A stretch of DNA of 57,182 nucleotides from Neisseria sp. (GTDB lineage Bacteria; Pseudomonadota; Gammaproteobacteria; Burkholderiales; Neisseriaceae), in contig JAUNTY010000014.1 of NCBI GenBank assembly GCA_030538415.1, positions 1 through 57,182 on the forward strand. The letters are read 5' to 3'. Made by a program: the position numbers and the translations under genes. Below the pieces are notes generated by a model, which saw only the letters and a program-made list of their open reading frames with translations, was not told where the DNA came from and ran no database searches. Positions 252-56,532 of the stretch are shown here, piece by piece. Position 1 is the first letter of the stretch; every line of letters starts with the position of its first letter.

Positions 252-296
252 GCCGTCTGAAACCGCACTTTCATCGTGCCAAGTTTCAGACGGCCT
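252..296. terminator. DUS-USS hairpin downstream of kefB-like gene
   Basis: GCCGTCTGAAAC pairs with GTTTCAGACGGC. The left arm runs directly into ACCGCACTT, the Haemophilus-type uptake core on the other strand. The inner part GCAC/GTGC can extend the stem. It lies about 40 bp past the stop of the minus-strand antiporter gene and is probably its terminator. Confidence 0.65.
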
Positions 297-333
297 GTTT
301 TTATTTTAATTGACGATAAAACCCGCAGAAAAC

Positions 334-2100
334 CTAATGCCCGCCCTTTCCTTTGCCCGCGTTGCCCAGCAGCAGTGCCCGTCCGGCGAATTCGTCGCCG
401 GCGACTTCCAGCGCGAAGCGTTCGCTGTCGGCGCGGCGCACTTGGGCGGTGATGGTGGCGGCTTCGGCTTTGTCCGCGCCCAACACCTTCAGCGCTTCGT
501 TGCCCATGCTGATGGCGGCATCGAAGGTTTCGCGCACCAGGTAATCGGCTTCGGCCTGCACCAGCGCCAATGCGTGGCGGCGGTCGTTGGCGCGCACAAT
601 CACTTTCACCGTCGGGCAGTGTTGCTTGATATTTTCCACAATCAGGGTGGCGGCAGCGGCGTCGTTGATACACACCAGCACGCAGTCGGCCTGATGCGCT
701 CCGGCGGCGTGCAGGATGTCTTCGCGCGAGCCGTCGCCGTAATACACTTTGAAGCCGTAGTCTGCTGCGCCGCGGATGACATCGGGGTCGTTGTCGATAA
801 TCGAAATGTCTGCGCCGTAGGCAATCGGCGCCTGGCTGGCGATTTGGCCGACGCGGCCGAAGCCGATAATCAACACGTTGCCGCGCAAGTTTTGACCGTC
901 GAGGTTTTCCACGCCGTTGAGGTCGGCGCCGTCCGTGCGGGCAAAGCGCTGCTGCAGAATCAGAAACAGCGGCGTCAGCGCCATCGACAACACCACAATC
1001 GCGGTCATATTGGCATGCACGGTGCTGTTGATCACCCCCTGCGATGCCGCCGCGGCAAACAACACAAAGGCAAACTCGCCGCCCTGCGCCATCATCACCG
1101 CCCTGTCGACCGCATCGGCATGGCTGCTTTTCGCCAGCCGCGCCACCGCATAAATCACCGCCGCTTTGGCCGCCATCAGCGCCAACACGCCGGAAACAAT
1201 CAGTTGCCAGTTTGCCGCCACCACGTTCAAATCCAGCGCCATGCCCACGCCGAGGAAAAACAGCCCGAGCAGCAGGCCGCGAAACGGTTCGATATCGGCT
1301 TCAAGCTGGTGGCGGAAGCTGGATTCCGACAGCAGCACCCCGGCCACAAACGCGCCCATCGCCGTCGACAGGCCGCCGGTTTCCATCAACAGCGCCGCGC
1401 CCAACACCACAAACAGCGCCGCCGCGGTCATCACTTCGCGCGCGCCCGATTTGGCCAGAATGCGGAACAAGGGGTTCAGCAGCCACAAACCCGCGCCAAT
1501 CAAGGCCGCCAGCGACAGCGCCGCAGTGCCGAAGCGCAGCCAGAACGAGGTTTCCGCCGCCGCATGAGCGGGGTCGGTGGGGGCGAGAAAGGCCACAATC
1601 GCCAGCAAAGGCACAATCAGCAAATCTTCAAACAATAAAATCGACACCATCCGCTGCCCGCGCGGCGAGGTCAGCTCGCGCCGCTCCGCCAGCACCTGCA
1701 TCACAATCGCGGTAGAGGTCAGCACAAAGCCCGAGGCGCTGACAAACGCCACCTGCCACGGAAAGCCAAACGCCATGCCCACCAGCGTCAGCATCAGCGC
1801 CGCCAGAATCACCTGCATGCTGCCCAGCCCGAAAATCTGGCGGCGCAAGCCCCACAGGTGCGACGGCTTCATTTCCAGCCCGATGACAAACAAAAACATC
1901 ACCACCCCCAGCTCGGCGATGTGGATAATCGCCTGCGGGTCGTCGAAAAACTTCAGGCCGAAAGGCCCGACCAGCAGCCCCGCCGCCAGATAGCCCAGCA
2001 CCGAGCCCAAACCCAGCCGCTTGAACAAAGGCACGGCCACCACCGCCGCCCCCAGCAATATCACCACGCGAACCAGCTCGCCCGCACCTTCTGCCGCCAT
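334..2100 (-). CDS. kefB: KefB/KefC-type monovalent cation:proton antiporter (CPA2)
   Basis: This 588-residue inner-membrane protein resembles glutathione-gated K+/H+ antiporters, which acidify the cytoplasm to protect against electrophiles. Residues 1 to about 385 are a run of hydrophobic helices with CPA2 features (LGYLAAGLLVGP, the ASGFVLTSTA stretch). A cytoplasmic TrkA-N Rossmann domain follows from about 405, with GFGRVGQ at 413-419 and the acidic IIDND strand end near 436. Length fits KefB/KefC (about 600). Whether it is truly gated by glutathione adducts cannot be read from the sequence. No KefF/G-type partner is adjacent, although a flavodoxin-fold protein of that kind lies at 38481-39038. 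The function fits the electrophile theme of the region. Confidence 0.85.
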   Translation of the reverse strand: MAAEGAGELVRVVILLGAAVVAVPLFKRLGLGSVLGYLAAGLLVGPFGLKFFDDPQAIIHIAELGVVMFLFVIGLEMKPSHLWGLRRQIFGLGSMQVILAALMLTLVGMAFGFPWQVAFVSASGFVLTSTAIVMQVLAERRELTSPRGQRMVSILLFEDLLIVPLLAIVAFLAPTDPAHAAAETSFWLRFGTAALSLAALIGAGLWLLNPLFRILAKSGAREVMTAAALFVVLGAALLMETGGLSTAMGAFVAGVLLSESSFRHQLEADIEPFRGLLLGLFFLGVGMALDLNVVAANWQLIVSGVLALMAAKAAVIYAVARLAKSSHADAVDRAVMMAQGGEFAFVLFAAAASQGVINSTVHANMTAIVVLSMALTPLFLILQQRFARTDGADLNGVENLDGQNLRGNVLIIGFGRVGQIASQAPIAYGADISIIDNDPDVIRGAADYGFKVYYGDGSREDILHAAGAHQADCVLVCINDAAAATLIVENIKQHCPTVKVIVRANDRRHALALVQAEADYLVRETFDAAISMGNEALKVLGADKAEAATITAQVRRADSERFALEVAGDEFAGRALLLGNAGKGKGGH

Positions 2101-2389
2101 AAAACCACCTTGATAAAAATCTGCTGAAAAGATAAACCGTGATGGCAGCGGGAAACCGCCGCATCACCGACAGCGGGATTATCGCCCCGTTCTGCCGATG
2201 CCGCCCGAAACCGCACTTGCGCGCTTCGACGGCCGCTTGATATTTGCAAACGGCATCTTATAACGTATCCGCAACCAAGTATAGTCGGAGAGTAAGTTTA
2301 GTACGGCGTTGGCTCGCCTTGCCGTACTAAACTTACTCTACGACTATAAAATAAACCTGCCCGCCCGAAGCCGCCGTTTTTTACCGCCG
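2101..2389. other. Intergenic region between kefB-like and LysR genes
   Basis: This 289-bp stretch holds the upstream region of the antiporter gene (minus strand) and a short Correia-like element at 2280-2348. It also lies downstream of the LysR gene. No other gene is seen. Confidence 0.5.
2280..2348. repeat. Short Correia-like element (69 bp)
   Basis: It starts TATAGTCGGAGAGTAAGTTT and ends AAACTTACTCTACGACTATA, with an almost completely palindromic interior (gtacggcgttggctcgccttgccgtac). The internal half found in the 104-108 bp copies is missing, so this is an internally deleted family member. It could form a strong cruciform or hairpin downstream of the LysR gene and may serve as its terminator. 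Confidence 0.7.
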
Positions 2390-3295
2390 TCACGCCTGCG
2401 ACGGCCAGACGGCGGCAAAATCCGCCGCCAACCGTTCTAGCAACACTGACACGGCGGGCAGCATGCCGCGGCGGTTGAGGTAGACCGCGTGAATCATGTC
2501 GCTGCCTGCGTCCCAGCCGTCGGGTAGAGCAGAACGCAGTCGCCCTTCCGCCAACTCGCGGCCGATGGCAAACTGCGGCAAAACGGCGATGCCCAACCCG
2601 GCAAGGGCGGCGCGGCGCAGCAAATCCAGGTTGCGGCTGGCGGTTTTGGCCTGATAATGCAACGAATAATGGCCGTGTTTGGGATGTTGCAGCAGCCAGT
2701 CGCCTTCGGGCTGGTGGCTGATGGCGGGGAGATTTTGCAGCTCAGCGGGCTCGGCAACCGCTTGCGGCAGCAAGTCGGGCGCGGCCACCAGCAAACGGCG
2801 CGAAACGGCAAAACGGCGGAAAAACAGCTCGCTATCGGGCGGCGGACATTCGCGCACGCGGATGGCGAAATCCAGCCCTTCTTTGGCGATATCCACAGGG
2901 TGGTTGGCGGGCAACACTTCCAAATCGATGTCGGGATAATCGCGTACAAACGTCGCCAGCATATGATTGACATACAGCTCCAGCAGCTCCGACGGGCAGC
3001 TGAAGCGCACTCTGCCGCGCGGCGTGCTGCTGTGTTGCGCAATCAATTGCCCGGCGGCCTCGGCCTCGGCGCGAATGGCGGCGCAATGCTGGTAATAGAG
3101 CAGACCGATTTGGGTGGGCTGGAAATGCTGGGCGCTGCGTTGCACCAATTTGACCCCGAGCCGCTCTTCCAGCTTGGCCATGCGGCGGCTGAAGGTGGCT
3201 TTGGGCATGCCGAGCTTGCGCGCAGCGGCGCTGAAGCCGCCTTCTTCAATCGCGCGGGCAAACAGATACAAATCGTTCAAATCGTTCAAACGCAT
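2390..3295 (-). CDS. LysR-family transcriptional regulator
   Basis: This 301-residue protein has the typical LysR layout. A winged helix-turn-helix at about 5-65 contains AIEEGGFSAAARKLGMPKAT, and an effector-binding domain runs from about 90. It is divergent from the YcaC-type hydrolase pair at 3505-4921, with a 209-bp shared promoter region. Control of that pair, with autoregulation, is therefore the likely role. The inducer is unknown. The N-terminal NDLYLFARAIEEGGF form resembles regulators of small-molecule detoxification genes (AaeR/CrgA branch). Confidence 0.88.
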   Translation of the reverse strand: MRLNDLNDLYLFARAIEEGGFSAAARKLGMPKATFSRRMAKLEERLGVKLVQRSAQHFQPTQIGLLYYQHCAAIRAEAEAAGQLIAQHSSTPRGRVRFSCPSELLELYVNHMLATFVRDYPDIDLEVLPANHPVDIAKEGLDFAIRVRECPPPDSELFFRRFAVSRRLLVAAPDLLPQAVAEPAELQNLPAISHQPEGDWLLQHPKHGHYSLHYQAKTASRNLDLLRRAALAGLGIAVLPQFAIGRELAEGRLRSALPDGWDAGSDMIHAVYLNRRGMLPAVSVLLERLAADFAAVWPSQA

Positions 3296-3504
3296 TCACA
3301 ATTCCATACTCAAAAAAGGGCGTAGCATGGCTATCTTGTCATGAATCAGGTTGCGGCAATAGCGCAAAATTTGGAACAAGCTGTTCCATTTTTAATGCTG
3401 TACCGTCACTTTTTTTCAGCATATAGTTTTCCTGCCTGCCGTTTTTTTACACACCGAGGCAGCGCCATCAAGATTTATCATTTTTGATATATAAGGAGTG
3501 TTCC

Positions 3505-4185
3505 ATGTCCCAACCTGCAAACTTCAACGGCGCTGCGCCGAAAATCAACCCGGCCGATGCGGCGCTGCTGCTGATCGACCACCAGAGCGGCCTGTTCAAC
3601 ACCGTGCGCGATTTGAATGTGCGCGAGCTGCGCGCCAACGCGGTTACCCTGGCAAAAATTGCCACGCTGGCGAAAATGCCGGTGATCACCACCGCCTCTG
3701 TGCCGCAAGGCCCCAACGGCCCGCTGATTCCTGAAATCCATGAAGCCGCGCCGCATGCGCAATATGTCGCCCGCAAAGGCCAAATCAATTCGTGGGACAA
3801 CCCTGATTTCGCCGCCGCCGTCAAAGCCACCGGCAAAAAACAGCTGATTATCGCCGGCACGATTACCAGCGTCTGCATGGCTTTCCCGGCCATTTCCGCC
3901 ATCGCCGAAGGCTATCAGGTGTTCTGCGTGGTCGATGCCTCGGGCACCTATTCAAAAATGGCGCAGGAAATCACCCTTGCCCGCGTGGTGCAGGCCGGTG
4001 CCGTGCCGATGGACACCGCCGCCGTCTGCTCGGAAATCCAGCAAACCTGGCACCGTGAAGACGCCGCCGAATGGGCAAAAGCCTACGAGCTGATTTTCCC
4101 CGAATACCAATTGCTGATTGAAAGCTACAGCAAAGCGCGCGAAGTGGAGCGCAACGGCGAGCAACTGGATTCCGAACGCGCCTAA
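3505..4185 (+). CDS. YcaC-like isochorismatase-family cysteine hydrolase
   Basis: This 226-residue protein belongs to the isochorismatase-like hydrolases. The nucleophile region GTITSVCMAF puts the cysteine at residue 124, and IDHQSG carries the conserved Asp at 25. It is a paralogue of the next gene, sharing the PNGPL, INSWDN/INAWDN and KATGKKQLIIAG blocks, but it has an extended N-terminus and C-terminus. The start chosen is ATG 3505 because AAGGAG lies 7 bp upstream; a TTG 21 bp earlier would place the RBS inside the gene. Substrate is unknown. It is probably the first gene of a two-gene unit controlled by the divergent LysR. Confidence 0.85.
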   Translation: MSQPANFNGAAPKINPADAALLLIDHQSGLFNTVRDLNVRELRANAVTLAKIATLAKMPVITTASVPQGPNGPLIPEIHEAAPHAQYVARKGQINSWDNPDFAAAVKATGKKQLIIAGTITSVCMAFPAISAIAEGYQVFCVVDASGTYSKMAQEITLARVVQAGAVPMDTAAVCSEIQQTWHREDAAEWAKAYELIFPEYQLLIESYSKAREVERNGEQLDSERA

Positions 4186-4204
4186 ACGCGCATCCTTGTG
4201 ACAG

Positions 4205-4253
4205 GCCGTCTGAAAAGCCTTTGTTAAAAAACAAAAGTGCGGTTGCAGACGGC
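4205..4253. terminator. DUS-USS hairpin between the two hydrolase genes
   Basis: GCCGTCTG pairs with CAGACGGC. The right arm carries AAGTGCGGT followed by a variant DUS (TGCAGACGGC, one base off). It sits between two co-directional genes, so it may reduce rather than abolish read-through. Confidence 0.55.
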
Positions 4254-4288
4254 GTGTTTCAAGCTGTTTTCATTTCAAGGAGATTACT

Positions 4289-4921
4289 ATGTCAAACCCG
4301 AAACCGTATGTTCGCCTCGATAAAAACGATGCCGCCATGCTGCTGGTGGATCACCAAACCGGCTTGCTGTCGCTGGTGCGCGATATCGACCCCGACAAAT
4401 TCAAAAACAACGTCTTGGCAACCGCCGACCTAGCCAAATATTTCGGCTTGCCGACCATTCTTACCACCAGTTTTGAAGACGGCCCCAACGGCCCGTTGGT
4501 GCCCGAATTGAAAGAAACCTTCCCCGATGCGCCGTATATCGCCCGCCCGGGCAACATCAATGCCTGGGATAACGAAGATTTCCTCGCCGCCGTGAAAGCC
4601 ACCGGCAAAAAGCAATTGATTATCGCCGGCGTGGTGACCGAAGTGTGCGTGGCGTTTCCCGCGCTGTCGGCGATTGCAGAAGGCTATGATGTGTTCGTCA
4701 TCACCGATGCCTCAGGCACATTCAACGAAATCACCCGCGATGCCGCATGGCGGCGCATGGAAGCGGCGGGCGTGCAATTGATGTCGTGGTTTGGCGCTGC
4801 CTGCGAACTGCACCGCGACTGGCGCAACGACATCGAAGGATTGGGCGCGCTGTTTGGCAACCACATTCCCGATTACCGCAACCTGATCACCAGCTACACT
4901 TTGATGACCCAAGGCAAGTAA
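4289..4921 (+). CDS. ycaC: YcaC-family cysteine hydrolase
   Basis: This 210-residue protein is very close to what I recall of E. coli YcaC, an octameric or multimeric isochorismatase-superfamily hydrolase of uncertain substrate. The N-terminus PYVRLDKNDAA, the DHQTGLLSLVRDI block (Asp21) and the nucleophile loop VVTEVCVAF (Cys120) are nearly identical to it. HRDWRNDIEGL near the C-terminus is also a YcaC hallmark. An RBS (AAGGAG) precedes the ATG. It follows the larger paralogue by 103 bp and is probably co-transcribed with it. Confidence 0.92.
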   Translation: MSNPKPYVRLDKNDAAMLLVDHQTGLLSLVRDIDPDKFKNNVLATADLAKYFGLPTILTTSFEDGPNGPLVPELKETFPDAPYIARPGNINAWDNEDFLAAVKATGKKQLIIAGVVTEVCVAFPALSAIAEGYDVFVITDASGTFNEITRDAAWRRMEAAGVQLMSWFGAACELHRDWRNDIEGLGALFGNHIPDYRNLITSYTLMTQGK

Positions 4922-4935
4922 GCGATTAACAAAGC

Positions 4936-4974
4936 AGGCCGTCTGAAAAGCAAAAGTGCGGTTTCAGACGGCCT
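4936..4974. terminator. DUS-USS terminator after ycaC
   Basis: AGGCCGTCTGAAA faces TTTCAGACGGCCT, followed by TTTCAT. The right arm contains the fused motif AAGTGCGGTTTCAGACGGC. It lies 15 bp after the ycaC stop. Confidence 0.7.
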
Positions 4975-5063
4975 TTTCATCATGCATAATCCAGTCGCTT
5001 TTATGCCGATTACGCGGTAGTATTTTAACTGATTGAAACCCAAACCAAAGGAAAGGACAGCAC

Positions 5064-5348
5064 ATGAACATTACCCAACAAGACGACGGCAAACACGGTG
5101 CGTTTCTTGCCGAAAGCAACGGCGCGCAGGCGGGCGAGATGACCTACACCTGGGCGGGCGACAAAATGTTTATCATCGACCACACCGATGTCGACGAGGC
5201 GTTTAAAGGCCAGGGCGTGGGGCGCAAGCTCTTGGATGCGGCGGTGGCGTTTGCCCGCGCCAAAAGCATCAAAATCCTGCCGCTGTGCCCGTTTGCCAAA
5301 TCGGTGTTTGACAAAGATGCCAGCATCCGCGACGTGTTGCACGGCTGA
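5064..5348 (+). CDS. Mini-GNAT N-acetyltransferase (YjdJ-like)
   Basis: This 94-residue single-domain protein belongs to the short GNAT-like family (COG2388). The acetyl-CoA loop is seen in VDEAFKGQGVGRKLLDAAVA (about 50-69), followed by KILPLCPFAKSVF. The family is generally thought to acetylate small molecules or proteins, but substrates are mostly unknown. GGAAAGG precedes the ATG. It forms an apparent operon with the next mini-GNAT (12 bp apart), the ChrR-like reductase and the pirin. Confidence 0.8.
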   Translation: MNITQQDDGKHGAFLAESNGAQAGEMTYTWAGDKMFIIDHTDVDEAFKGQGVGRKLLDAAVAFARAKSIKILPLCPFAKSVFDKDASIRDVLHG

Positions 5349-5360
5349 CAGGGGCGCGCC

Positions 5361-5657
5361 ATGAAAAAAGACTACCGCGTTATCGACAATCGGGCTGCCA
5401 AGCGTTTTGAAATCCATCAGGACGGCTACACCGCCTTTGAAGACTACCAATTGTTTGACGGCGGCATCGCCTATCTGCACACCGAAGTGCCGCCGGAGCT
5501 GGGCGGGCGCGGCATCGCCTCGTTTCTGATCAAATACATTCTCGACGATGCCGCCGCCAAAGGGCTGAAAGTCAAACCGATTTGCCCATTGGTGAGAGCC
5601 TATATCGACAAACATCCCGAATACCAAGCGAATTCCACACTGCATCAACCCGATTAA
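5361..5657 (+). CDS. Mini-GNAT N-acetyltransferase
   Basis: This 98-residue protein is a second short GNAT-like protein, distinct from but related to its upstream neighbour. VPPELGGRGIASFLIKYILD is the acetyl-CoA loop and KPICPLVRAYIDKHPEYQ is the usual C-terminal signature of the family. It follows the previous stop by 12 bp and precedes the flavin reductase gene by 10 bp, so translation is probably from one mRNA. The substrate is unknown. Confidence 0.8.
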   Translation: MKKDYRVIDNRAAKRFEIHQDGYTAFEDYQLFDGGIAYLHTEVPPELGGRGIASFLIKYILDDAAAKGLKVKPICPLVRAYIDKHPEYQANSTLHQPD

Positions 5658-5667
5658 GGAAGCCATC

Positions 5668-6204
5668 ATGACCAACATCGCCCTGATTATCGGCAGCCTG
5701 AGCCGCAAATCCATCAACCGCGCCATTGCGCAACACATCGCCGCCCAAGCAGGCGAAAACATTGCCGTCGAGGAAGTGCAGATTGGCGATTTGCCGCTCT
5801 ATACCCAAGATTTGGACGCAGAAGATATTCCCGCTTACGAACGTGTGCGCCGCCAATTGCAAAATGCCGATGCCGTGCTGATTGTCAGCCCCGAACACAA
5901 CCGCAGCATGCCCGCCGCAGTGAAAAACCTGATTGACATCGCCTCGCGCCCGTATGGCAAAAACGTCTGGGCGGGCAAAAAAGTGGCGGTGGTCACGGCC
6001 TCACCGGGCAGCTACGGCGGCATCAACAGCGGCTTGCACCTGCGCCAGAGCCTGCAAATGCTCGGCGCCGATATGCTGATTGCGCCCGAAGTGTTTTTAA
6101 GCCGCGCCAGCGACGCCTTGGATGAAAACGGCAAAGTTGCCGACGCGCGAACCGCCGCTTTTTTAAACAAATTTGCCGCCGCGTTTTACGCTTGGGCGGC
6201 CTGA
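5668..6204 (+). CDS. NADPH-dependent FMN reductase (ChrR/YieF-like quinone reductase)
   Basis: This 178-residue flavodoxin-fold protein has the FMN reductase pattern. GSLSRKSINRAIAQHI is the phosphate loop, SPEHNRSMPAAVKNLIDIAS the flavin-contact segment, and GKKVAVVTASPGSYGG the third strand. These match the ChrR/YieF family, which reduces quinones, chromate and other acceptors by obligate two-electron transfer. It is cytoplasmic, with no signal. It is third in the GNAT-GNAT-reductase-pirin cluster and consistent with a quinone/electrophile response. Confidence 0.85.
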   Translation: MTNIALIIGSLSRKSINRAIAQHIAAQAGENIAVEEVQIGDLPLYTQDLDAEDIPAYERVRRQLQNADAVLIVSPEHNRSMPAAVKNLIDIASRPYGKNVWAGKKVAVVTASPGSYGGINSGLHLRQSLQMLGADMLIAPEVFLSRASDALDENGKVADARTAAFLNKFAAAFYAWAA

Positions 6205-6234
6205 TCCCAAACCTGCCGACAAGAGAGACAACAT

Positions 6235-7134: not shown

Positions 7135-7153
7135 GCTTAAAATCAAAACCATG

Positions 7154-7193
7154 AGGCCGTCTGAAACGCGTAAAGTGCGGTTTCAGACGGCCT
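7154..7193. terminator. Bidirectional DUS-USS terminator
   Basis: AGGCCGTCTGAAAC pairs with GTTTCAGACGGCCT, with AAGTGCGGT in the right arm. It lies between the convergent pirin and aldo-keto reductase genes and probably ends both transcripts. Confidence 0.7.
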
Positions 7194-7215
7194 GAGCTTT
7201 TTCTCATTCAACCAA

Positions 7216-9246: not shown

Positions 9247-9247
9247 G

Positions 9248-48247: not shown

Positions 48248-48282
48248 GTTTATGCTCCATTGTTTTGCGAAGACTGCCGCTG

Positions 48283-48780: not shown

Positions 48781-48837
48781 CAGAAATCTCCTAACTGTTT
48801 GATTATTTTTGCCGAAACACTGCCGACCAGCGTACTG

Positions 48838-49491: not shown

Positions 49492-49504
49492 CGTTTGTTC
49501 TCCT

Positions 49505-49672
49505 TGCTAGGGCTTCCTGACAATTCGATTTACGGGTGCTTTTTGCCCCTGAAAACGCACCTGCTGCGTTAAAAAGCCTCGCAAGATGTCCAATCTTGCT
49601 GCGTTTTTTGCCTTGCATCTGCATTTTCAGGAACAAAAATCCCCTCATAAACAAATTGTCAGGAAGCCCTAG
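49505..49672. repeat. Inverted-repeat miniature element (MITE-like, 168 bp)
   Basis: The ends CTAGGGCTTCCTGACAATT and AATTGTCAGGAAGCCCTAG are a perfect 19-bp inverted repeat. Inside, CCTGAAAACGCA mirrors TGCATTTTCAGG and CAAGATgtccaATCTTG is a central hairpin. It has no coding capacity. It lies in the 265-bp gap between the first two genes of the exported redox operon. The family differs from the Correia-like elements. Confidence 0.75.
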
Positions 49673-49756
49673 GCCGTCTGAAAAATTTTTTAAAATCAGA
49701 CCGCACTTACTGTATAAATTCAGGCTGTATGAATCCAGGTTATATGAAGTCTGGCT

Positions 49757-50749
49757 TTATTCGCCGCCGAAGGTGGAAAATTTGCGTTGTTTGTCTAATT
49801 TGGCAAACTGCGCCATTTCGTCCGCCGTCAGTTCAAAATCGAAAATCTCGATATTTTCCCGAATGTGTGCGGGGTTGCTTGAGCCCGGAATAGCGATATT
49901 GCCCGCCTGCAACTGCCAACGCAGAATGGTTTGCGCCGGTGTTTTGCCGTGGGTTTCGGCAACAGCTCGAATGACAGGGTCGGCAAACAGCGTGTCTTTG
50001 CCGCCTTGCCCGTAGCTGTTGCGTCCGCCCAACGGATACCAGGCTTCCATTTGCGTGCCGTAGTTTTTCAGAAACGCTTTGGTGTGGTTGTCTTGGTTGT
50101 ATGGATGCACTTCGTTTTGCACCACCGCAGGCGGTATGGTGGCGACCTGCATGATTTCGCCGAACGTTTTGCGGTGATAATTCGATAATCCGATGGTGCG
50201 TAATTTGCCTTGTTGCACAAAGCGTTCCATCACCTGCCACGCCTCTTGGTCATGGCGGTCGGGGGCGTGCAACAGCAGCAAATCGATATAATCGGTGCCG
50301 AGCAAACGCAGCCGTTCATTGATGGCGTTTTCGGCGTTGGCATAATCGGCGCTGCCGTAAATTTTGGTGGTGATAAAAATTTGATCACGGGCGATAGCCG
50401 ATTGCTTCACCGCACGCCCGACCGCTTCTTCATTGCGGTACATTTTTGCCGTATCGATCAGCCGATAGCCGCTTTGCAAGGCATGGCTGACAGAATTTGC
50501 CGCCTGCTCGGGGGTAAGCGTCCACATGCCGATGCCGATAATCGGCATTTCGATACCGTTATTCAGCAATACGCTGCGTTTGTTGAAATCAAAAGGGTGA
50601 AAGGCGGTGCTGCCTGTGTTTGCTGCCGCTGTGTTTGCTGTTGTGGCATGGGCGGCGGTTTTTTCCGCTTCGGCACGGCAGGCGGGCAATAATGACAATG
50701 CGGCAAGCCCTGCGGCGGTTTTCAGTAGATTACGTCTGGCCCGGTTCAT
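49757..50749 (-). CDS. Exported aldo/keto reductase, Tat/lipoprotein signal
   Basis: The 330-residue protein begins MNRARRNLLKTAAGLAALSL-LPAC: a twin-arginine motif (ARRNLLK) and lipobox LPAC with Cys24. The mature AKR has GIGMWTL, LIDTAKMYRNEEAVG (Asp and Tyr of the tetrad), FITTKIYG (Lys) and LLLLHAPDRH (His), and PGSSNPAHIRENIEIFDFEL. It is the first gene of the minus-strand unit, divergent from the AraC gene at 51048, with a 298-bp promoter region between. The N-terminus is very like that of the flavodoxin-fold gene, which hints at signal duplication. Confidence 0.85.
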   Translation of the reverse strand: MNRARRNLLKTAAGLAALSLLPACRAEAEKTAAHATTANTAAANTGSTAFHPFDFNKRSVLLNNGIEMPIIGIGMWTLTPEQAANSVSHALQSGYRLIDTAKMYRNEEAVGRAVKQSAIARDQIFITTKIYGSADYANAENAINERLRLLGTDYIDLLLLHAPDRHDQEAWQVMERFVQQGKLRTIGLSNYHRKTFGEIMQVATIPPAVVQNEVHPYNQDNHTKAFLKNYGTQMEAWYPLGGRNSYGQGGKDTLFADPVIRAVAETHGKTPAQTILRWQLQAGNIAIPGSSNPAHIRENIEIFDFELTADEMAQFAKLDKQRKFSTFGGE

Positions 50750-51047
50750 TTTCGCTCTCCTTTATTACCCTATTTTTAGCGCGGCAGAATTTCCACCGTG
50801 GCGTTCAGTTTCATGCATCGCTACGCCGTCGGTTTTTATGGGCTTATTATGTATTCAAATGCTCACCAAGCGGCTGCCTAAAACTCCAGCATTATTGTCT
50901 AAAATTACAAATATCAATATAAACGGTTTTATCCGTCTTTCCAGCCCTGTAAAATAAGGCAATAAAACGAGCGGATTTAACGACTTTTTTAGATAAATTT
51001 GTAATTTTAGAGATTAATTGTCAATGTATAAAATTTTAGGGGATCAG

Positions 51048-51932
51048 ATGAATAATCCATTATTAAAACGGGTGCAACGCCATGCGGTTGATTTGAATCC
51101 TGCCCAAACCCATTATCCGATCCACGGGATTTTGCCCGACATCACGCCTTACCGCTTTTTTGCGCCCACACCGCCTGATGTCTGCGTGGAAGCACCGTTT
51201 TGCGCTTTTGTATTGCAGGGCGAAAAAGAAGTGCTTGCCGACAAACAGCGACAACATCTGCATGGCGGTCAATTTAACTTGTCGGTGATTGACATGCCGA
51301 TCACCAGCCGCATTACCAAAGCCAGCAAAGATGAACCTTATTACGGCTTGGTGGTGCGTTTGAATCTGGATGACATCGGCGAATTTATCCGCCGACACGG
51401 GTTAAGCGCCCCCAAACACGACAATCCGCCCAAAATAGCCGTCATAGAGCAAGTGGCACAGCTTAATAATGTGCTTTGCCGCTGGTTGGACTTGCTGGAC
51501 ACGCCCTCCGCCGCCCCTGTATTGGCAACGCTGTATCGGCAGGAATTTTATTTTTGGCTGCTTAATCAGCCGGAAAGCATCATGCTGTTTCATGCCACTC
51601 AAAGCGACAGCCATGCCAACAAAATCAGCAAGGCAACCGAATGGATTCGTGCAAATTTCAGGCAGCCCATCTCCATCAAAGCGCTGGCGCAAAGCGTCGC
51701 ACTCAGCCAATCGGGTTTTCACCACCATTTCGCCCGACTGACAGGCTTAACCCCCTTGCAATTTCAAAAACAACTGCGTTTGCAAGAAGCAAGGCGATTA
51801 ATGTTGCGCGGCGAAGATGCCGCCAGCGCCTGCATTGAAGTCGGCTACGAAAGCAGCAGTCAGTTTTCACGCGAATACCGCCGCTGCTTCGGTAATCCGC
51901 CGAAAAAAGACATTGAATTATTACAACCATAA
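51048..51932 (+). CDS. AraC-family transcriptional regulator
   Basis: The 294-residue protein has an N-terminal AraC-type ligand domain (IHGILPDITPYRFFAPTPPD, FCAFVLQGEKEVLADKQ) and a C-terminal HTH pair: PISIKALAQSVALSQSGFHH, HHFARLTGLTPLQFQKQLRL and CIEVGYESSSQFSREYRRCF. ATG 51048 follows AGGGGA by 5 bp; ATG 51024 is an alternative. It is divergent from the four-gene exported redox operon and probably controls it. Confidence 0.87.
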   Translation: MNNPLLKRVQRHAVDLNPAQTHYPIHGILPDITPYRFFAPTPPDVCVEAPFCAFVLQGEKEVLADKQRQHLHGGQFNLSVIDMPITSRITKASKDEPYYGLVVRLNLDDIGEFIRRHGLSAPKHDNPPKIAVIEQVAQLNNVLCRWLDLLDTPSAAPVLATLYRQEFYFWLLNQPESIMLFHATQSDSHANKISKATEWIRANFRQPISIKALAQSVALSQSGFHHHFARLTGLTPLQFQKQLRLQEARRLMLRGEDAASACIEVGYESSSQFSREYRRCFGNPPKKDIELLQP

Positions 51933-51997
51933 TCAGCCTGCCTGTAAGCGGTGAAAAATAACCGTTTCCGCACTTTAACTGATTAAATGGATTGGCA

Positions 51998-52045
51998 AGG
52001 CCGTCTGAAACCGCACTTTCATCGTGCGAAAGTTTCAGACGGCCT
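51998..52045. terminator. DUS-USS terminator overlapping LysR stop
   Basis: AGGCCGTCTGAAACCGCACT...catcgtgcgaaAGTTTCAGACGGCC. The minus-strand LysR ends in GCC GTC TGA (Ala-Val-stop), which is the right-hand DUS (52035-52043). Confidence 0.75.
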
Positions 52046-52976
52046 TGTTTTGTTCCCAATAAGGCACTTCGCCGTAGATTTCAATAAAGAAATCCAGCAC
52101 CGCACGCACATTCAGCGGCACATGGCGGGAATTGGGGTAGATTGCGTGGATATAGAGCTGTTCTGCTTTGATGCTAAACGCATGGTCGGGCAGCAGCTTG
52201 ACCAATTGCCCTGATTGAATGTATTCGCCGATGCTCCATTCGGGCATTAAAAGAATACCCATGCCGTTTAATGCCCAAGTAATCAGCGCTTCGGCGTTGT
52301 TAGAGAATAATTTGGCTTGGGCGGGCAATTTCTGCCATTCGCCGTCCACTTGGGCAAGCCAATACTGTATGCCGTTTGCGCCTTTATACAGCAAGCCTTG
52401 GTGGTGGATTAAATCTTGCGGACACTGCGGCGGGGAATGCCGTGTCAGATAGTCGGGCGAACAGGCGAGCAGGTAGCGTTCTTTGCCGAAAATGCGAGCT
52501 TTGAGCGAAGAATCCGCCAAGCCGCTGATGCGGAAAATCAAGTCTGCCGTGCCGCCCAGCGGATTGATAAAATCATCGCTTTGGCTTAATTCAATGTGCA
52601 AATCGGGGTGGCGTTTTAAGAGTTCGGGCAGATAAGGCACGATATGGCGCTGGGCGAAAATCACGGGGGCGTTGATGCGCACCAAGCCGCTGGGTTCACG
52701 CCCCCGCTCTTGCAGCCGTTGTTGGGCATGATGCCATTGTCCGGTGATTTCACGCGCGTAATCCAGCAACATCAAGCCCGCTTCGGTGGCGGCGACGCTG
52801 CGGGTGCTGCGGTAAAACAGCTGCTGCCCCAAGGCTTCTTCCATTTGGTAAATGGTGCGGGACACCAATGACGGCGAAACCTGTTCGTCACGGGCGACGG
52901 TGGATAAATTACCGCTTTCGCAGACTTGGATAAAAATCTTTAAATCACGAATGCTGATGTGTTCGTAGGCTTTCAT
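52035..52976 (-). CDS. LysR-family transcriptional regulator
   Basis: The 313-residue protein begins MKAYEHISIRDLKIFIQVCE and has VARDEQVSPSLVSRTIYQME as the recognition region. TRSVAATEAGLMLLDYAREI and a full effector domain follow. The final AV-stop is DUS-encoded. It is divergent from the paired YdcZ-like transporter genes across 189 bp and likely controls them. A USS-only hairpin lies in this region. Confidence 0.88.
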   Translation of the reverse strand: MKAYEHISIRDLKIFIQVCESGNLSTVARDEQVSPSLVSRTIYQMEEALGQQLFYRSTRSVAATEAGLMLLDYAREITGQWHHAQQRLQERGREPSGLVRINAPVIFAQRHIVPYLPELLKRHPDLHIELSQSDDFINPLGGTADLIFRISGLADSSLKARIFGKERYLLACSPDYLTRHSPPQCPQDLIHHQGLLYKGANGIQYWLAQVDGEWQKLPAQAKLFSNNAEALITWALNGMGILLMPEWSIGEYIQSGQLVKLLPDHAFSIKAEQLYIHAIYPNSRHVPLNVRAVLDFFIEIYGEVPYWEQNKAV

Positions 52977-53112
52977 TTGTGCACTTCCTGCAAAGGTGTT
53001 TGTTAAATTATAGCATTTTTTTCAAAAAAGAAATCTTTTATACTGCCAAGCCTTGGGAAGATTGAAAAACGACGGGTTTAAGACGGCGTTTTTTATTCTG
53101 ATGAGTCACGTT

Positions 53113-53147
53113 AAGTGCGGTGATGGTTATCACAGTAAACCGCACTT
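53113..53147 (+). terminator. USS-only hairpin with T-run upstream of ydcZ pair
   Basis: AAGTGCGGT and ACCGCACTT face each other across a 17-base spacer that itself has a GTGATGGTTATCAC hairpin. It is followed by TTTTTATTTTT, as in an intrinsic terminator. It lies only 18 bp before the start of the first YdcZ gene, so it could attenuate that gene or be a leftover of a deleted gene's end. No DUS is present. Confidence 0.6.
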
Positions 53148-53165
53148 TTTATTTTTAAGGTAACT

Positions 53166-53606
53166 ATGCAGTTTTTATTGATTTTATTGGTGATTGCGGG
53201 CGGCATGGGCTTGTCGGTGGAAGCGGGTTTGCTCGGCCCCTTGGGCCAGGAAGTGGGCAAATTGTGGGCAAGCCTGAGCGTTTTCGGCGTGGGGTCGGTG
53301 CTGACCTTTTTGCTGATGCTGTTTTTTTCGCCACGAAACAGCCCGTCTGTTTTTGCACAGCCAAGTTGGACACTGACGGGCGGTATTTTGGGCGCGGCTT
53401 GGCTGGTGGTTTTGACCATGGCTGTGCCCGTCATCGGTATTGCGATGACCATGGTCGCCGTGCTCGCCGGGCAGGTGTTTAAAAGCATGGTGATTGACCA
53501 CTTCGGCTGGTTTGGTATGTCGGCACGCAAAATCAACCGCAAACGGCTGATTGCGTTGGGGCTGATTGTGTTGGCGTTGGTTTTTATTATGTTGGGAGAT
53601 GCGTGA
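53166..53606 (+). CDS. DMT-family transporter, DUF606/YdcZ-type (short subunit 1)
   Basis: The 146-residue membrane protein has about five hydrophobic helices, of the DUF606/YdcZ family (about 140-150 residues): MQFLLILLVIAGGMGLSVEA, LTGGILGAAWLVVLTMAVPV, AVLAGQVFKSMVIDHFGWFG. Paired YdcZ proteins probably act as heterodimeric small drug/metabolite exporters. The TGA stop overlaps the next start (TGATG, 53604-53608), so both subunits are co-translated. LysR 52035 is the likely regulator. Confidence 0.84.
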   Translation: MQFLLILLVIAGGMGLSVEAGLLGPLGQEVGKLWASLSVFGVGSVLTFLLMLFFSPRNSPSVFAQPSWTLTGGILGAAWLVVLTMAVPVIGIAMTMVAVLAGQVFKSMVIDHFGWFGMSARKINRKRLIALGLIVLALVFIMLGDA

Positions 53607-54085
53607 TGTCGGTGATGATGATTTTGATGGTGTTGCTTGCGATTGCAGGCGGGGCGATGCTCAGCGTTCAGTCTGCCGTCAATAGCCGCTTGGGCAGTCA
53701 GGTCGGGGTGTTTAAAAGTGCGTTTTTGACCTTTGCGATAGGCGCAATGATCACGGCATTGTTGATTTTTTATTTTGAACCGAACCATGAAAAAACCCTG
53801 ATGGATGTGCCGAAATGGCAATTATTGGGGGCAATGTTCGGCGTGCCTTATCTCGTCATCATGGTGATTGCGGTGCAACGCATTGGCGCAGCAGTGGCAA
53901 CGGTGGCGGTGATCTTCGGGCAATTGCTGATGAGCGTGCTGATTGACCATTTCGGTTGGTTCGGCAATGACATCATTCCCTTCTCGCCCTACCGCCTGCT
54001 TGCGGTCATCTGCTTGGGGCTGGCATTGTATTTTATTTATTCAAGTGCCAAACAACCTGCGGCGGTGCATTCGGTTGCCGAGTGA
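53606..54085 (+). CDS. DMT-family transporter, DUF606/YdcZ-type (short subunit 2)
   Basis: The 159-residue membrane protein is homologous to the preceding gene: AIAGGAMLSVQSAVNSRLGS, MFGVPYLVIMVIAVQRIGAA, VIFGQLLMSVLIDHFGWFGN share the glycine-rich helices and the DHFGWFG ending. ATG 53606 (shared A with TGA) is chosen over a GTG 3 bp earlier. Subunit pairs of this kind are known for the YdcZ/EmrE-like DUF606 proteins. Confidence 0.84.
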   Translation: MSVMMILMVLLAIAGGAMLSVQSAVNSRLGSQVGVFKSAFLTFAIGAMITALLIFYFEPNHEKTLMDVPKWQLLGAMFGVPYLVIMVIAVQRIGAAVATVAVIFGQLLMSVLIDHFGWFGNDIIPFSPYRLLAVICLGLALYFIYSSAKQPAAVHSVAE

Positions 54086-54123
54086 TGTGGTTGCGGGATG
54101 TTGCGGAAGCACAGAAAATAAAG

Positions 54124-54174
54124 GCCGTCTGAAACGTTTGTTTGCTTGAAAAGCAAAGTGCGGTTTCAGACGGC
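54124..54174. terminator. Bidirectional DUS-USS terminator
   Basis: GCCGTCTGAAACGTTTGTTTGCTT and AAGCAAAGTGCGGTTTCAGACGGC in shorter view: a long imperfect stem of the tgctt/aagca loop family. It lies between convergent YdcZ and Fe-ADH genes. The right arm holds the fused motif AAGTGCGGTTTCAGACGGC. Confidence 0.72.
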
Positions 54175-54218
54175 ATTTTCAGTATTGAAATCTTGCTAAA
54201 AAGGTCGCGGATAGCGCA

Positions 54219-55397
54219 TCAGAGCGTCATTTTATAGATTTGATACATATCCGCTTCATGCAAGGTTTTTGCCGAACCGATTTTACCGTTTACCGCCAGA
54301 CCACACAGCGTTGCCATCTGTTGCAATTGCTCGTCGCTCGGCGTAATGCCCAGTTCGGTTAGTGAGGTCGGCATGGCGATGCTGCGGTAAAAATCTTCCA
54401 TCGCTTCAATGCCTTTCAAGGCGATTTCTGGCTCACTGCCGTCTGCGTCCACCCCCATCACGTTTTGTGCAAAACGCACAAACGGCGCAAGGCAATCTTG
54501 ATAGACATAACGCGCCCAGCTGCCCCAAATCGCCGCCAAGCCCGCGCCGTGTGCCACATCAAACATGCCGCCGACTTCGTGTTCCAGCATATGCGTCGCC
54601 CAATCGCCGCCGCCGTTGCCGCAACCGGTCAAATCATTATGCGCCAAACTGCCTGCCCACATGATTTCTGCTCGGGCGGCGTAATCGTTGGGGTTGCGAT
54701 GCAGGATTTGGGCGTTGTGCATCACGGTGCGCATTAATGCCTCGGCAATGCTGGTGGTGATTTCCATTTTGCCGCCTGTGGTGAAATAGCGTTCCATGGT
54801 GTGCATCAAAATATCAACGCAGCCGCTGGCGGTTTGATAATCAGGCAGGGTTAAGGTTAATTCAGGATTCATAACGGCGAATTTCGGGCGTGATAAATCA
54901 TCGTCATAAGCCCGTTTGATTCCCCCTTCATCTTTGGTGATGACCGAGCCGCCGCTCATTTCGCTGCCCGCGGCGGCAATGGTTAATACCACGCCAAGCG
55001 GCAGGCAGGCGCGTGCTTTGCGGCTGTGTTCAAACAGATCCCACACATCGCCGTCTTCCGCTGCGCCGTAGCCGATGGCTTTGGCGGAATCAATCACGCT
55101 GCCGCCGCCGACCGCCAAAATAAAATCCACCTGTTCACGACGGCAGAGTTCAATGCCTTGGTAAACCAATGATAAACGCGGATTCGGCACAACACCGCCG
55201 AGTTCTACGCTTGCGATACCGGCAACTGCCAAGGCGTTTTTCACTCGAGCCAACAGCCCTGAACGAATCACACTGCCGCTGCCGTAATGCAGCAATACTT
55301 TTTTGGCATTCAATGCCCGAATTAAATCACCGACCTGAGTTTCGCTTTGTTTGCCGAAAATCACCTTGGTGGGGGCGAAATAGGTAAAATTGTTCAT
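54219..55397 (-). CDS. Iron-containing alcohol dehydrogenase
   Basis: The 392-residue protein is a group III dehydrogenase of the butanol dehydrogenase/YqhD type. FILAVGGGSVIDSAKAIGYG holds the NAD(P) GGGS motif, and iron ligands are expected in CVDILMHTMERYF (Asp, His) and in FDVAHGAGLAAIWGSWARY (His pair). VIFGKQSETQVG at the N-terminus fits. It likely reduces aldehydes with NADPH. AGGAGC precedes the ATG. It is divergent from LysR 55525, with a TTATGTACATAA palindrome in the 127-bp gap. Confidence 0.92.
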   Translation of the reverse strand: MNNFTYFAPTKVIFGKQSETQVGDLIRALNAKKVLLHYGSGSVIRSGLLARVKNALAVAGIASVELGGVVPNPRLSLVYQGIELCRREQVDFILAVGGGSVIDSAKAIGYGAAEDGDVWDLFEHSRKARACLPLGVVLTIAAAGSEMSGGSVITKDEGGIKRAYDDDLSRPKFAVMNPELTLTLPDYQTASGCVDILMHTMERYFTTGGKMEITTSIAEALMRTVMHNAQILHRNPNDYAARAEIMWAGSLAHNDLTGCGNGGGDWATHMLEHEVGGMFDVAHGAGLAAIWGSWARYVYQDCLAPFVRFAQNVMGVDADGSEPEIALKGIEAMEDFYRSIAMPTSLTELGITPSDEQLQQMATLCGLAVNGKIGSAKTLHEADMYQIYKMTL

Positions 55398-55479
55398 TTT
55401 CTGCTCCTGTTTATCAATGTGTTTGAAGGGGTTGCCAATGGCTTATTTGCTGACTTGAAGGGCAGTATAAATCAAGTTA

Positions 55480-55491
55480 TTATGTACATAA
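55480..55491. promoter_or_regulatory. Palindrome TTATGTACATAA between Fe-ADH and LysR
   Basis: A 12-bp perfect palindrome lies in the divergent promoter region, about 34 bp before the LysR start, in an AT-rich context. It could be the operator of the LysR protein; this is inferred. Confidence 0.4.
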
Positions 55492-55524
55492 ATAGCTATA
55501 ATTTAAAAATACTGTTAGGTTTTT

Positions 55525-56475
55525 ATGAACAATATTTCATGGCGTGGCATTCGTGCTTTCTTGCAGGTCGCCGAGAGCGGCAGCTTTACCGCAGCAGCCG
55601 ATGCAACAGGCTTATCCAAAGCCAACATCAGCCAATTGGTCAGTGAATTGGAGCGGCAGCTTGGCGTGCAACTGCTCTACCGCACCACCCGCCGCCTGCA
55701 ACTGACCGAAATCGGCAAAGGCTATCACGCACGTTGCGAGCAGGCGATAGCCGCATTGGATGCGGCAGCGGAATGGGCAATGCAGTCCACCAATGCCGTA
55801 AAAGGCGTGATTCGGGTCAATTCGGTAGGCGGAGTCGTCGGTGAAAATCTCATTGCCCCCTTGTTGCTGGCATTCCAACGCCGCTATCCCGAAGTGGAGG
55901 TGCGCCTGGACTTTTCCAGCATACGCGTGGATTTGATTGACGGGCATTATGATTTGGTGATTCGGATGGGCGATTTGCCGGATTCCACCTTGATGGTACA
56001 AAAATTACACAACTTTACCACCCACTACGTTGCCACGCCCGAATTGTTGGCTCGTTATCCTGCGATCAATCATCCTGACGACCTAAAAAACCTGCCACTG
56101 ATTTGCGGCAGCGTCGATCACTGGCAATTCAGTAAAAACGGCACAAAAGCAAGCATCAACGTAGAAAAAGGCTTACGTATCAACAGCGGCAAAGCCTTGC
56201 GGCACGCCGCCCTGGCAGGCATGGGCGTGGTGCGCAACAGCGATATTTATGTGGCGGCAGACATCGCCCGCGGCGATTTGACCGACATATTGGCAGGCTG
56301 GTCGCCCCCCATTGCCATTTCCATGATTAGCCCGCCGCTGCAACACCAATTAAAACGGGTCAGCACCTTGCAAGCATGGCTGAAACAACACTTTGCCCAC
56401 GGCTATCGGCAAATATTGCAACAGGGGGCGGAGCAGAGTTTGTGGACTGCGGAATTTGAATGTTTCAATGAATAA
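55525..56475 (+). CDS. LysR-family transcriptional regulator
   Basis: The 316-residue protein begins MNNISWRGIRAFLQVAESGS, with TGLSKANISQLVSELERQLG as the recognition region. TTRRLQLTEIGKGYHARCEQ and a full effector domain follow. The RAFLQVAESGSFTAAA pattern is the AaeR/CrgA branch. It is divergent from the Fe-ADH gene and is its probable regulator. A DUS-USS hairpin follows the stop directly. Confidence 0.88.
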   Translation: MNNISWRGIRAFLQVAESGSFTAAADATGLSKANISQLVSELERQLGVQLLYRTTRRLQLTEIGKGYHARCEQAIAALDAAAEWAMQSTNAVKGVIRVNSVGGVVGENLIAPLLLAFQRRYPEVEVRLDFSSIRVDLIDGHYDLVIRMGDLPDSTLMVQKLHNFTTHYVATPELLARYPAINHPDDLKNLPLICGSVDHWQFSKNGTKASINVEKGLRINSGKALRHAALAGMGVVRNSDIYVAADIARGDLTDILAGWSPPIAISMISPPLQHQLKRVSTLQAWLKQHFAHGYRQILQQGAEQSLWTAEFECFNE

Positions 56476-56532
56476 ATGCCGTCTGAAACCGCACTTTGCT
56501 TCTTCAAGCAAATAAAAAATTTCAGACGGCAT
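56476..56532. terminator. Bidirectional DUS-USS terminator (AT type)
   Basis: ATGCCGTCTGAAACCGCACT...gcttcttcaagca...TTTCAGACGGCAT. It lies directly after the LysR stop and 16 bp before the stop of the convergent GST gene. Confidence 0.72.

What the first reader, a model, noticed from the sequence alone, without database searches (positions are those of the whole stretch)
252..56532. DUS and Haemophilus-type USS fused into one 19-bp motif in most terminators
By eye I counted 19 perfect copies of AAGTGCGGTTTCAGACGGC or its complement, plus three one-base variants, across the window. AAGTGCGGT is the Haemophilus-type uptake core and GCCGTCTGAA is the neisserial one; they abut exactly, with no spacer. 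Each hairpin has DUS on both arms, but only one arm carries the USS, except at 12949-12985. Free USS cores also occur in several genes (near 16262, 20808, 30111, 33302, 34036, 45386, 57001). A genome that displays both uptake dialects could favour DNA exchange with both families, or recruit Pasteurellaceae DNA. This is the most unusual pattern in the window.
Basis: partly seen in the sequence, partly recalled or inferred. Interest (0 to 1): 0.85.

Follow-up and report, generated by a model that had tools for sequence, protein, structure and literature searches.

The report
Gene islands tagged for two families
A stretch of Neisseria-type DNA carries, fused into its gene-end hairpins, the DNA-uptake passwords of two unrelated bacterial families, and matching islands occur in both families, so it looks like a shared gene pool traded by free-DNA uptake across a very wide evolutionary gap.

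Summary
The motif is real: 19 exact fused 19-mers, 24 with up to 3 mismatches (chance 0.05), plus 24 free USS cores. It is not a genome trait: in this DUS-type genome USS is at chance outside three tracts, this contig, C29 38-65 kb and C31 23-29 kb. The same fused hairpins occur in four Pasteurellaceae genomes, in islands that hold much of their few DUS copies. A single-contig genome of the same genus (G046) and Chelonobacter oris share 43.8 kb of such islands at 93-99% identity, including 16.3 kb at 99.1%. Shared-block ends sit on DUS or fused motifs far above chance (13 of 24 at DUS, 1.3 expected); at three seams one hairpin in G046 stands where Chelonobacter has two copies with extra DNA between. 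Best reading: a bilingual pool of accessory gene cassettes, with no integrase seen, moving by natural transformation between Neisseriaceae and Pasteurellaceae, the fused hairpin being uptake tag for both and recombination seam. Dual uptake and termination are inferred, not tested. Nine searches of an open-licence paper library found no description of it.

The parts
1..57182 (.). Bilingual cassette island (whole contig C35): LysR/AraC/TetR regulators next to redox and detoxification enzymes, transporters, RhuM-like and other accessory genes
   Evidence: Pfam scans of 60 ORFs, 52 with a match; USS9 47, DUS10 67
252..294 (+). fused DUS-USS hairpin, exact 19-mer
2200..2218 (+). degenerate fused arm (2 mismatches), second DUS arm degenerate
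4205..4253 (-). fused hairpin, 1 mismatch in the DUS half
4938..4972 (-). fused hairpin, exact
7156..7191 (-). fused hairpin, exact
10300..10342 (+). fused hairpin, exact
12200..12218 (+). fused arm, 1 mismatch in the USS half; no second DUS arm; exact copy in the Testudinibacter sp. homologue
12944..12990 (.). fused hairpin with USS on both arms, one DUS arm degenerate
15787..15839 (-). fused hairpin, exact
22287..22339 (+). fused hairpin, exact
23447..23498 (+). fused hairpin, exact
25313..25354 (-). fused hairpin, exact
28553..28606 (-). fused hairpin, exact; also at the end of the 89% homologue in a Moraxella MAG contig
32057..32100 (+). fused hairpin, exact
35131..35167 (-). fused hairpin, exact
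36774..36817 (-). fused hairpin, exact
40016..40058 (-). fused hairpin, exact
43335..43377 (+). fused hairpin, exact
46284..46325 (+). fused hairpin, 1 mismatch; exact copy at the matching end of the Pasteurella testudinis homologue (88% over 1131 bp)
47431..47473 (+). fused hairpin, exact
52000..52043 (+). fused hairpin, exact
54124..54174 (-). fused hairpin, exact
56478..56530 (+). fused hairpin, exact
53113..53147 (.). pair of free USS cores facing each other (plain USS inverted repeat)
7879..57011 (.). 24 free USS9 cores starting at 7879, 10380, 13616, 13967, 16262, 19256, 20808, 23399, 28906, 30111, 31493, 33302, 34036, 34527, 37465, 37950, 39839, 40980, 41593, 45386, 49700, 53113, 53139, 57003; 12 of 24 inside ORFs of a hand-made list
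30258..30363 (.). dispersed repeat (TATAGTCGTT...) found in many genomes of the genus, also in the Testudinibacter aquarius island at 94.5%
31585..31825 (.). second dispersed repeat shared with other contigs of the same assembly (88-95%)
37952..38045 (+). match to Rfam RF02902 (Aggregatibacter sRNA 22), beginning inside a free USS (37950-37958)
39841..39937 (+). second match to Rfam RF02902, beginning inside a free USS (39839-39847)

Best explanation
The window is part of a pool of accessory gene cassettes that moves between Neisseriaceae and Pasteurellaceae by natural transformation. On average one fused hairpin per 2.5 kb bounds units of a few genes: its outer stem is a neisserial DUS pair, its inner part holds a Hin-type USS abutting the DUS. 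Shown: both signals dense inside islands and the foreign signal at or near chance outside them, in both families; very recent sharing between G046 and Chelonobacter oris; block ends concentrated on these motifs. Inferred: each family's uptake machinery takes up cassette DNA by its own signal; the shared hairpins then serve as homology for inserting, swapping or deleting cassettes; repeated residence in both families keeps both signals.
For: Neisseria side: USS9 is clearly above its reversed control in 2 of 83 Neisseriaceae, G000 98 vs 16 and G046 77 vs 28; the other 81 have at most 36. In G000, 79 of 98 copies lie in three tracts. Pasteurellaceae side: four genomes with 2803-3192 USS9 hold exact fused copies; in Chelonobacter 75 of 90 DUS10 lie in C13 18-87 kb and 9 more in C2 81-88 kb, none in the C13 flanks binned (0-17.5 and 87.5-100 kb). 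Recent sharing: 16343 bp at 99.09%, 7246 at 98.90%, 4912 at 98.74%, 4307 at 98.28%, between three chromosomal sites of G046 and one Chelonobacter island. Seams: 13 of 24 block ends within 10 bp of a DUS10 in either genome (null 1.3, maximum 6 in 5000 draws), 9 of 24 at a fused motif of up to 2 mismatches (null 0.6, maximum 5); three seams read out. Of 17 ends intergenic in Chelonobacter, 10 fall at DUS (13.1% expected) and 8 at fused motifs (6.4%). Traffic mark: a repeat common in the genus lies in the T. aquarius island, with partial copies in P. testudinis. Island GC bins mostly 0.49-0.60 against 0.42-0.51 in the Chelonobacter flanks. ComP_DUS receptor family in 3 of 3 genomes of the genus scanned and 0 of 4 Pasteurellaceae. 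None of 60 window ORFs matched an integrase, transposase or conjugation family.
Against: No uptake was measured; N. meningitidis was not significantly transformed by USS DNA alone (PMC3630211, passages). The 99% sharing is shown for G046, not the window, whose blocks of 300 bp or more with the fetched Pasteurellaceae and MAG loci reach 80-89%. G129 and G123 hold DUS-rich tracts with almost no USS, and G124 holds both signals unfused, so fusion is not required for transfer. The predicted decay of the foreign half was not significant (mismatches DUS:USS 20:23 in Neisseria, 58:42 in Pasteurellaceae; p 0.27). AT tracts of the extended USS do not discriminate. None of the 7 fused hairpins in 40000-57182 was called by a generic terminator scan, which found no excess of sites (27 vs 28.7), and 3 of 24 sites lie between divergent ORFs of my list. 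BLAST extends alignments into shared repeats, inflating the seam signal. tRNA genes lie near some edges, as for site-specific elements. G000 is a 106-contig draft with 2.17% estimated contamination.
Confidence: 0.65

Rival explanations
1. Passive composite repeat: a DUS hairpin once picked up a USS-like loop by chance and was copied along with cassettes; the USS half does nothing in Neisseria and the DUS half nothing in Pasteurellaceae.
For: Several loop types recur at different sites. One-mismatch relatives such as AAGTGCAGT before TTCAGACGGC exist in ordinary G046 DNA. Decay test not significant.
Against: 24 free USS cores in the window away from the hairpins, 0.48 expected for all USS9; USS9 and DUS10 conserved across families more than local identity predicts (19 of 55 vs 5.7; 24 of 35 vs 2.7, fused sites included and with alignment-end bias).
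Confidence: 0.16
2. Carriage by an ordinary mobile element (ICE, plasmid or phage), with uptake signals accumulating later.
For: Large clustered accessory regions. tRNA genes lie about 2.5 kb left of the Chelonobacter C13 island, about 1 kb left of the first USS of the C31 tract, and about 0.4 kb from a lone fused copy in G046.
Against: No integrase, transposase, relaxase or phage structural family among 60 window ORFs; for a 19.9-kb part no phage match and one plasmid match covering 5%; no viral contig with the exact 19-mer; blocks lie at three dispersed G046 sites in shuffled order.
Confidence: 0.1
3. A third, unsampled host reads both signals and is the source; the islands are exports from it.
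For: Both signals at high density in one DNA; a Moraxella MAG with fused copies and one ComP_DUS hit.
Against: None of 83 Neisseriaceae has genome-wide USS (maximum 98) and none of 140 Pasteurellaceae genome-wide DUS (maximum 90); the Moraxella MAG has only 91 USS9 (control 58) and 23 DUS10 (control 5).
Confidence: 0.06
4. Assembly or binning artefact.
For: G000 is a draft with 2.17% contamination.
Against: G046 is a single 2.95-Mb contig with the islands inside; C29 and Chelonobacter C13 pass from host-type to island DNA within one contig; the window shares dispersed repeats with other G000 contigs.
Confidence: 0.03

Closest known systems
Uptake-signal terminators (Kingsford 2007, PMC1852404)
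   Same: Inverted uptake-signal pairs form gene-end hairpins in Neisseria (DUS) and in Pasteurellaceae (USS) (passages)
   Different: In the passages seen each genome uses its own signal; here both signals sit in one hairpin
Haemophilus-Neisseria gene transfer (Kroll 1998; not held; known from citations and recall)
   Same: Chromosomal genes moved between the two families
   Different: Called rare in PMC3630211, though PMC3868556 speaks of ample evidence for transfer from such neighbours; here tens of kb, many cassettes, several hosts, both signals fused
DUS-dialect islands and ICEs in Neisseriaceae (PMC7371117)
   Same: Islands recognised by a foreign uptake dialect; overlapping dyads of two DUS dialects (passages)
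   Different: Those dyads are within one family and the elements have integrase and conjugation genes; here two families and none seen in the window
Integron cassettes (recalled)
   Same: Arrays of small accessory gene units bounded by a shared hairpin-forming sequence
   Different: No integron integrase family among the ORFs scanned; seams fit homologous recombination at the hairpins
Minimal mobile elements of Neisseria (recalled; papers only seen as listing)
   Same: Gene-sized replaceable units moved by transformation
   Different: Those (recalled) lie between conserved genes within a genus; these cross families

Membership tests
Uptake-signal intrinsic terminator | inverted pair of uptake signals forming a stable hairpin | tested here: met
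   21 of 23 hairpins have an exact second DUS arm; 8 of 23 folded, all 8 stable, z -6.6 to -9.0
Uptake-signal intrinsic terminator | position at gene 3' ends | tested here: met
   of 24 sites: 15 tail-to-tail, 5 behind one gene, 3 between divergent ORFs, 1 at the contig edge; hand-made ORF list
Uptake-signal intrinsic terminator | T-rich tail / termination | tested here: inconclusive
   in 40000-57182 the generic scan listed none of 7 fused hairpins and no excess of sites (27 vs 28.7); its short-loop rule may exclude these two-tier hairpins; termination itself not tested
Hin-type USS | exact 9-bp core at about one per kb | tested here: met
   47 in 57 kb; 2803-3192 per genome in four Pasteurellaceae; not met in the rest of G000
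Hin-type USS | AT tracts 3' of the core | tested here: inconclusive
   weak in islands and in the Chelonobacter and T. aquarius host DNA alike
Hin-type USS | promotes uptake by Pasteurellaceae | not testable with these tools
   needs an assay
Neisserial DUS (AG/AT dialects) | GCCGTCTGAA with AG or AT prefix | tested here: met
   58 of 67 in the window
Integrative conjugative element | integrase and conjugation genes | tested here: not met
   none among 60 window ORFs; other islands only sampled, 30 ORFs
Integrative conjugative element | insertion at a tRNA gene | tested here: inconclusive
   tRNA genes near but not at the edges of the Chelonobacter C13 island and the C31 tract; none in the fetched C29 or in the three large G046 tracts scanned
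Integron | integron integrase | tested here: not met
   no integrase family among 60 window ORFs
Integron | attC sites | not tested
   not searched

The most novel reading that the evidence does not exclude
A recombinase-free, integron-like cassette system run by the recipients' own competence: the fused DUS-USS hairpin is a dual passport read by two unrelated uptake machines and also the attachment site at which cassettes are inserted, exchanged or lost, linking the accessory genomes of a beta- and a gammaproteobacterial family.
Probability: 0.4. Interest if true: 0.92.

Novelty: new variant of a known kind. Interest (0 to 1): 0.85.

Why it matters
Uptake signals are thought to keep each family's DNA exchange largely to itself, and exchange between N. 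meningitidis and H. influenzae has been called rare (PMC3630211). A gene pool that carries both signals would be a standing bridge across that barrier, would help explain how accessory regulators, redox enzymes and restriction-modification systems spread between families, and gives a direct test of whether uptake signals can be selected or driven as dual tags. It also offers a simple genomic screen: the other family's signal marks imported DNA.

Tried and rejected
Genome-wide bilingualism: rejected. Artefact: judged unlikely. Vector by phage or plasmid: no support for the 19.9-kb part tested or for the 19-mer in viral contigs. Asymmetric decay of the foreign half: tested, not significant. Extended-USS AT tracts as proof of Pasteurellaceae residence: not discriminating; the A before the core is 0.61 in free copies of G000 islands, 0.68 in Chelonobacter host DNA, 0.62 in T. 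aquarius host DNA, but 0.46 and 0.47 in free copies of the G046 and Chelonobacter islands. Conservation of the fused motif across homologous cassettes: 5 of 11 vs 0.11 expected, but several alignments are about 60% identical and reach the motif at their end, so I give it little weight. Rfam: RF02902 twice in the window, absent from 420 kb of other loci; left unexplained. A recalled Correia-type repeat end was searched in a script and gave nothing. Tandem repeats: two short arrays, unrelated. Gene trees for the direction of each transfer were not made. The DUS-rich Pasteurellaceae G217 and G130 were tested only for the 19-mer, not inspected. On re-checking I raised the mobile-element rival from 0.09 to 0.10 because of tRNA genes near some edges and lowered the passive-repeat rival from 0.17 to 0.16.

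Absence from print rests on searches of an open-licence library only; Kroll 1998 was not held. The genus of G000 is not named by the tools; Neisseria is inferred from 4058 DUS10 copies and ComP_DUS.
Full report
Observation. The 19-mer occurs exactly 19 times in the window and 24 times with up to three mismatches (shuffle expectation 0.05). USS9 occurs 47 times (expectation 0.48) and DUS10 67 times. Of the 47 USS9, 23 belong to fused sites and 24 are free, 12 of these in ORFs of a hand-made list. The 24 fused sites form 23 hairpins; 21 of 23 have an exact second DUS arm. RNA folding of 8 of the 23 gives stable hairpins (z -6.6 to -9.0): seven have an outer DUS stem with an inner stem from USS or loop bases, and the one at 12940-12995 pairs USS with USS. 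Of the 24 sites, 15 are tail-to-tail, 5 lie behind one gene, 3 between divergent ORFs and 1 at the contig edge. A generic terminator scan of 40000-57182 listed none of the 7 fused hairpins there, so 'terminator' rests on position, hairpin and the known habit of both families.

It is an island, not a genome trait. The window is the whole of contig C35 of a 2.84-Mb, 106-contig assembly whose name is withheld; I infer Neisseria from its DUS and ComP_DUS genes. All 30 exact fused copies lie in C29, C31 and C35. Of 98 USS9 copies, 47 are in C35, 25 in C29 38.4-65.3 kb and 7 in C31 22.8-28.7 kb; 19 remain elsewhere, and the reversed control gives 16 genome-wide. DUS10 occurs 4058 times. In 2.5-kb bins C29 has no USS from 2.5 to 37.5 kb and then 0 to 4 per bin. 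The island's DUS prefixes differ from the host's: AG 39, AT 19 in the window and AG 14, AT 11 in the C29 island, against AG 55, AT 3 and AG 53, AT 6 in the host parts fetched. This suggests arrival from DNA of another dialect background.

The mirror image in Pasteurellaceae. A scan of genome contigs found the exact 19-mer in 29 stretches: Chelonobacter oris, Pasteurella testudinis, Testudinibacter aquarius and Testudinibacter sp. BK221 (one family), a Moraxella MAG and one unnamed MAG. The four Pasteurellaceae carry 2803 to 3192 USS9 each but only 18 to 90 DUS10. In Chelonobacter 75 of 90 lie in C13 18-87 kb and 9 in C2 81-88 kb; C13 bins on either side, fetched to 100 kb, have none. In the main stretches fetched from the others lie 53 of 74 (P. 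testudinis), 13 of 18 (T. aquarius) and 13 of 29 (Testudinibacter sp.), so DUS is thinner in Testudinibacter. Chelonobacter island bins have GC mostly 0.49-0.60 (one 0.37) against 0.42-0.51 around them. Over families: 3 of 83 Neisseriaceae have the exact 19-mer (30, 24 and 1 copies); USS9 stands out only in G000 and G046. Of 140 Pasteurellaceae, 10 have 18 or more DUS10 and the other 130 at most 15. Six of those ten, and one more, lie outside the four named species; with up to two mismatches the 19-mer occurs there 0 or 1 times.

Recent exchange. G046, a single 2.95-Mb contig of the same genus, and Chelonobacter share blocks of 16,343 bp at 99.09%, 7,246 at 98.90%, 4,912 at 98.74%, 4,307 at 98.28%, 3,438 at 98.23% and 2,458 at 98.50%, and six smaller ones of 93-98%; together they cover 43.8 of the 73 kb between 17.5 and 90.5 kb of Chelonobacter C13. 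In G046 they lie at three distant sites, in Chelonobacter in one island. A further 3.0-kb block at 95.3% lies on Chelonobacter C2. The window itself is older: its blocks of 300 bp or more with the fetched Pasteurellaceae and MAG loci reach 80-89% (one 171-bp stretch is 91.2%), gene-sized and scattered over non-matching positions. For a 19.9-kb part the best-scoring match in the genus outside G000 is G046 at 81%, and in Pasteurellaceae P. testudinis at 88% (the tool scored only a few first-look candidates per genome).

Seams. Of 24 block ends, 13 lie within 10 bp of a DUS10 in either genome and 9 within 10 bp of a fused motif of up to two mismatches; random points within the blocks give 1.3 and 0.6, with maxima 6 and 5 in 5000 draws. 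Of the 17 ends that are intergenic on the Chelonobacter side, 10 are at DUS (13.1% of intergenic positions) and 8 at fused motifs (6.4%). At G046 2241483, 1168442 and 1324303 a single fused hairpin joins flanks that in Chelonobacter sit at two separate copies about 2.2, 4.5 and 7.9 kb apart. The last gap holds type I restriction-modification genes. Gain or loss by recombination between hairpin copies explains this most simply. Alignment programs extend into shared repeats, so the exact figures are inflated; 11 of 24 ends are not near a DUS10.

Contents. Of 60 window ORFs scanned (a few are alternative frames), 52 have a Pfam match: 10 LysR, 2 AraC and 1 TetR regulators, and enzymes such as aldo/keto reductases, short-chain dehydrogenases, flavodoxin-like and nitroreductase proteins, GST, cupin, pirin, DJ-1, plus transporters; none matched an integrase, transposase, conjugation or phage structural family. 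Twenty ORFs from Chelonobacter C13 (one a helicase gene left of the island) and ten from C29 (two left of the island) show the same kind, plus DNA methylase and type I restriction genes.

Traffic in both directions is hinted. A repeat of about 106 bp found in many genomes of the genus occurs in the window and, at 94.5%, in the T. aquarius island, with partial copies in P. testudinis. Two matches to an Aggregatibacter RNA family start inside free USS copies of the window, though that family was not found in 420 kb of other fetched loci, Pasteurellaceae included. Pasteurellaceae G129 and G123 hold DUS-rich tracts nearly without USS, apparently plain imports, and G124 C6 55-75 kb holds both signals (9 USS9, 11 DUS10) unfused.

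Mechanism and limits. ComP_DUS, the DUS receptor family, was found in G000, G046 and G012, once in the Moraxella MAG, and in none of the four Pasteurellaceae. I infer that each family takes up cassette DNA by its own signal and that the hairpins supply homology. Not shown: uptake by either half, termination, direction of individual transfers. Against: N. meningitidis is not significantly transformed by USS DNA alone, which fits a need for DUS on the same fragment but does not prove it; the decay test did not reach significance; tRNA genes near some edges leave room for an ordinary element.

Known work. Hairpins built from one family's signal are known (passages), as are intergeneric transfers (cited; original not held) and dyads of two DUS dialects in Neisseriaceae elements (passages). 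Nine searches of the paper library, of which I saw listings and passages only, showed no description of a fused DUS-USS hairpin or of bilingual islands; most subscription papers are not held.

Noticed in passing
L105-L106 (G129:C1 2280-2305 kb); L109 (G123:C12 120-135 kb): Two other Pasteurellaceae hold DUS-rich tracts with hardly any USS (17 DUS10 to 3 USS9; 18 to 1): apparently plain Neisseria imports without the fused motif.
   Followed up: partly
L107 (G124:C6 55-75 kb): A Pasteurellaceae tract with both signals (9 USS9, 11 DUS10) but no fused copy.
   Followed up: partly
L054, G000:C31 26537-26627: A cluster of an 18-bp overlapping form (AAGTGCGGTTCAGACGGC) in which the two cores share one base; the same form is seen in P. 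testudinis L049.
   Followed up: no
window 37952-38045 and 39841-39937: Two matches to the Aggregatibacter RNA family RF02902, each beginning inside a free USS and next to the start of a minus-strand ORF; perhaps a shared regulatory leader.
   Followed up: partly
window 53113-53147: Two facing free USS cores form a plain USS inverted repeat between two divergent genes.
   Followed up: no
G000:C58 5193-5920; G046:C1 2164724-2165456; G012:C1 1009774-1010559: Two ComP_DUS-family genes in tandem, and a third weaker match elsewhere (below the cut-off in G012), in each of the three genomes of the genus scanned.
   Followed up: no
G041, G065, G066: The reversed control pattern of the USS is itself frequent (100, 118 and 129 copies), perhaps part of some repeat.
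   Followed up: no
L069 12121-19699 (Chelonobacter C13 52-60 kb): Type I restriction-modification genes lie between two fused-hairpin copies and are absent at the matching seam of G046.
   Followed up: yes
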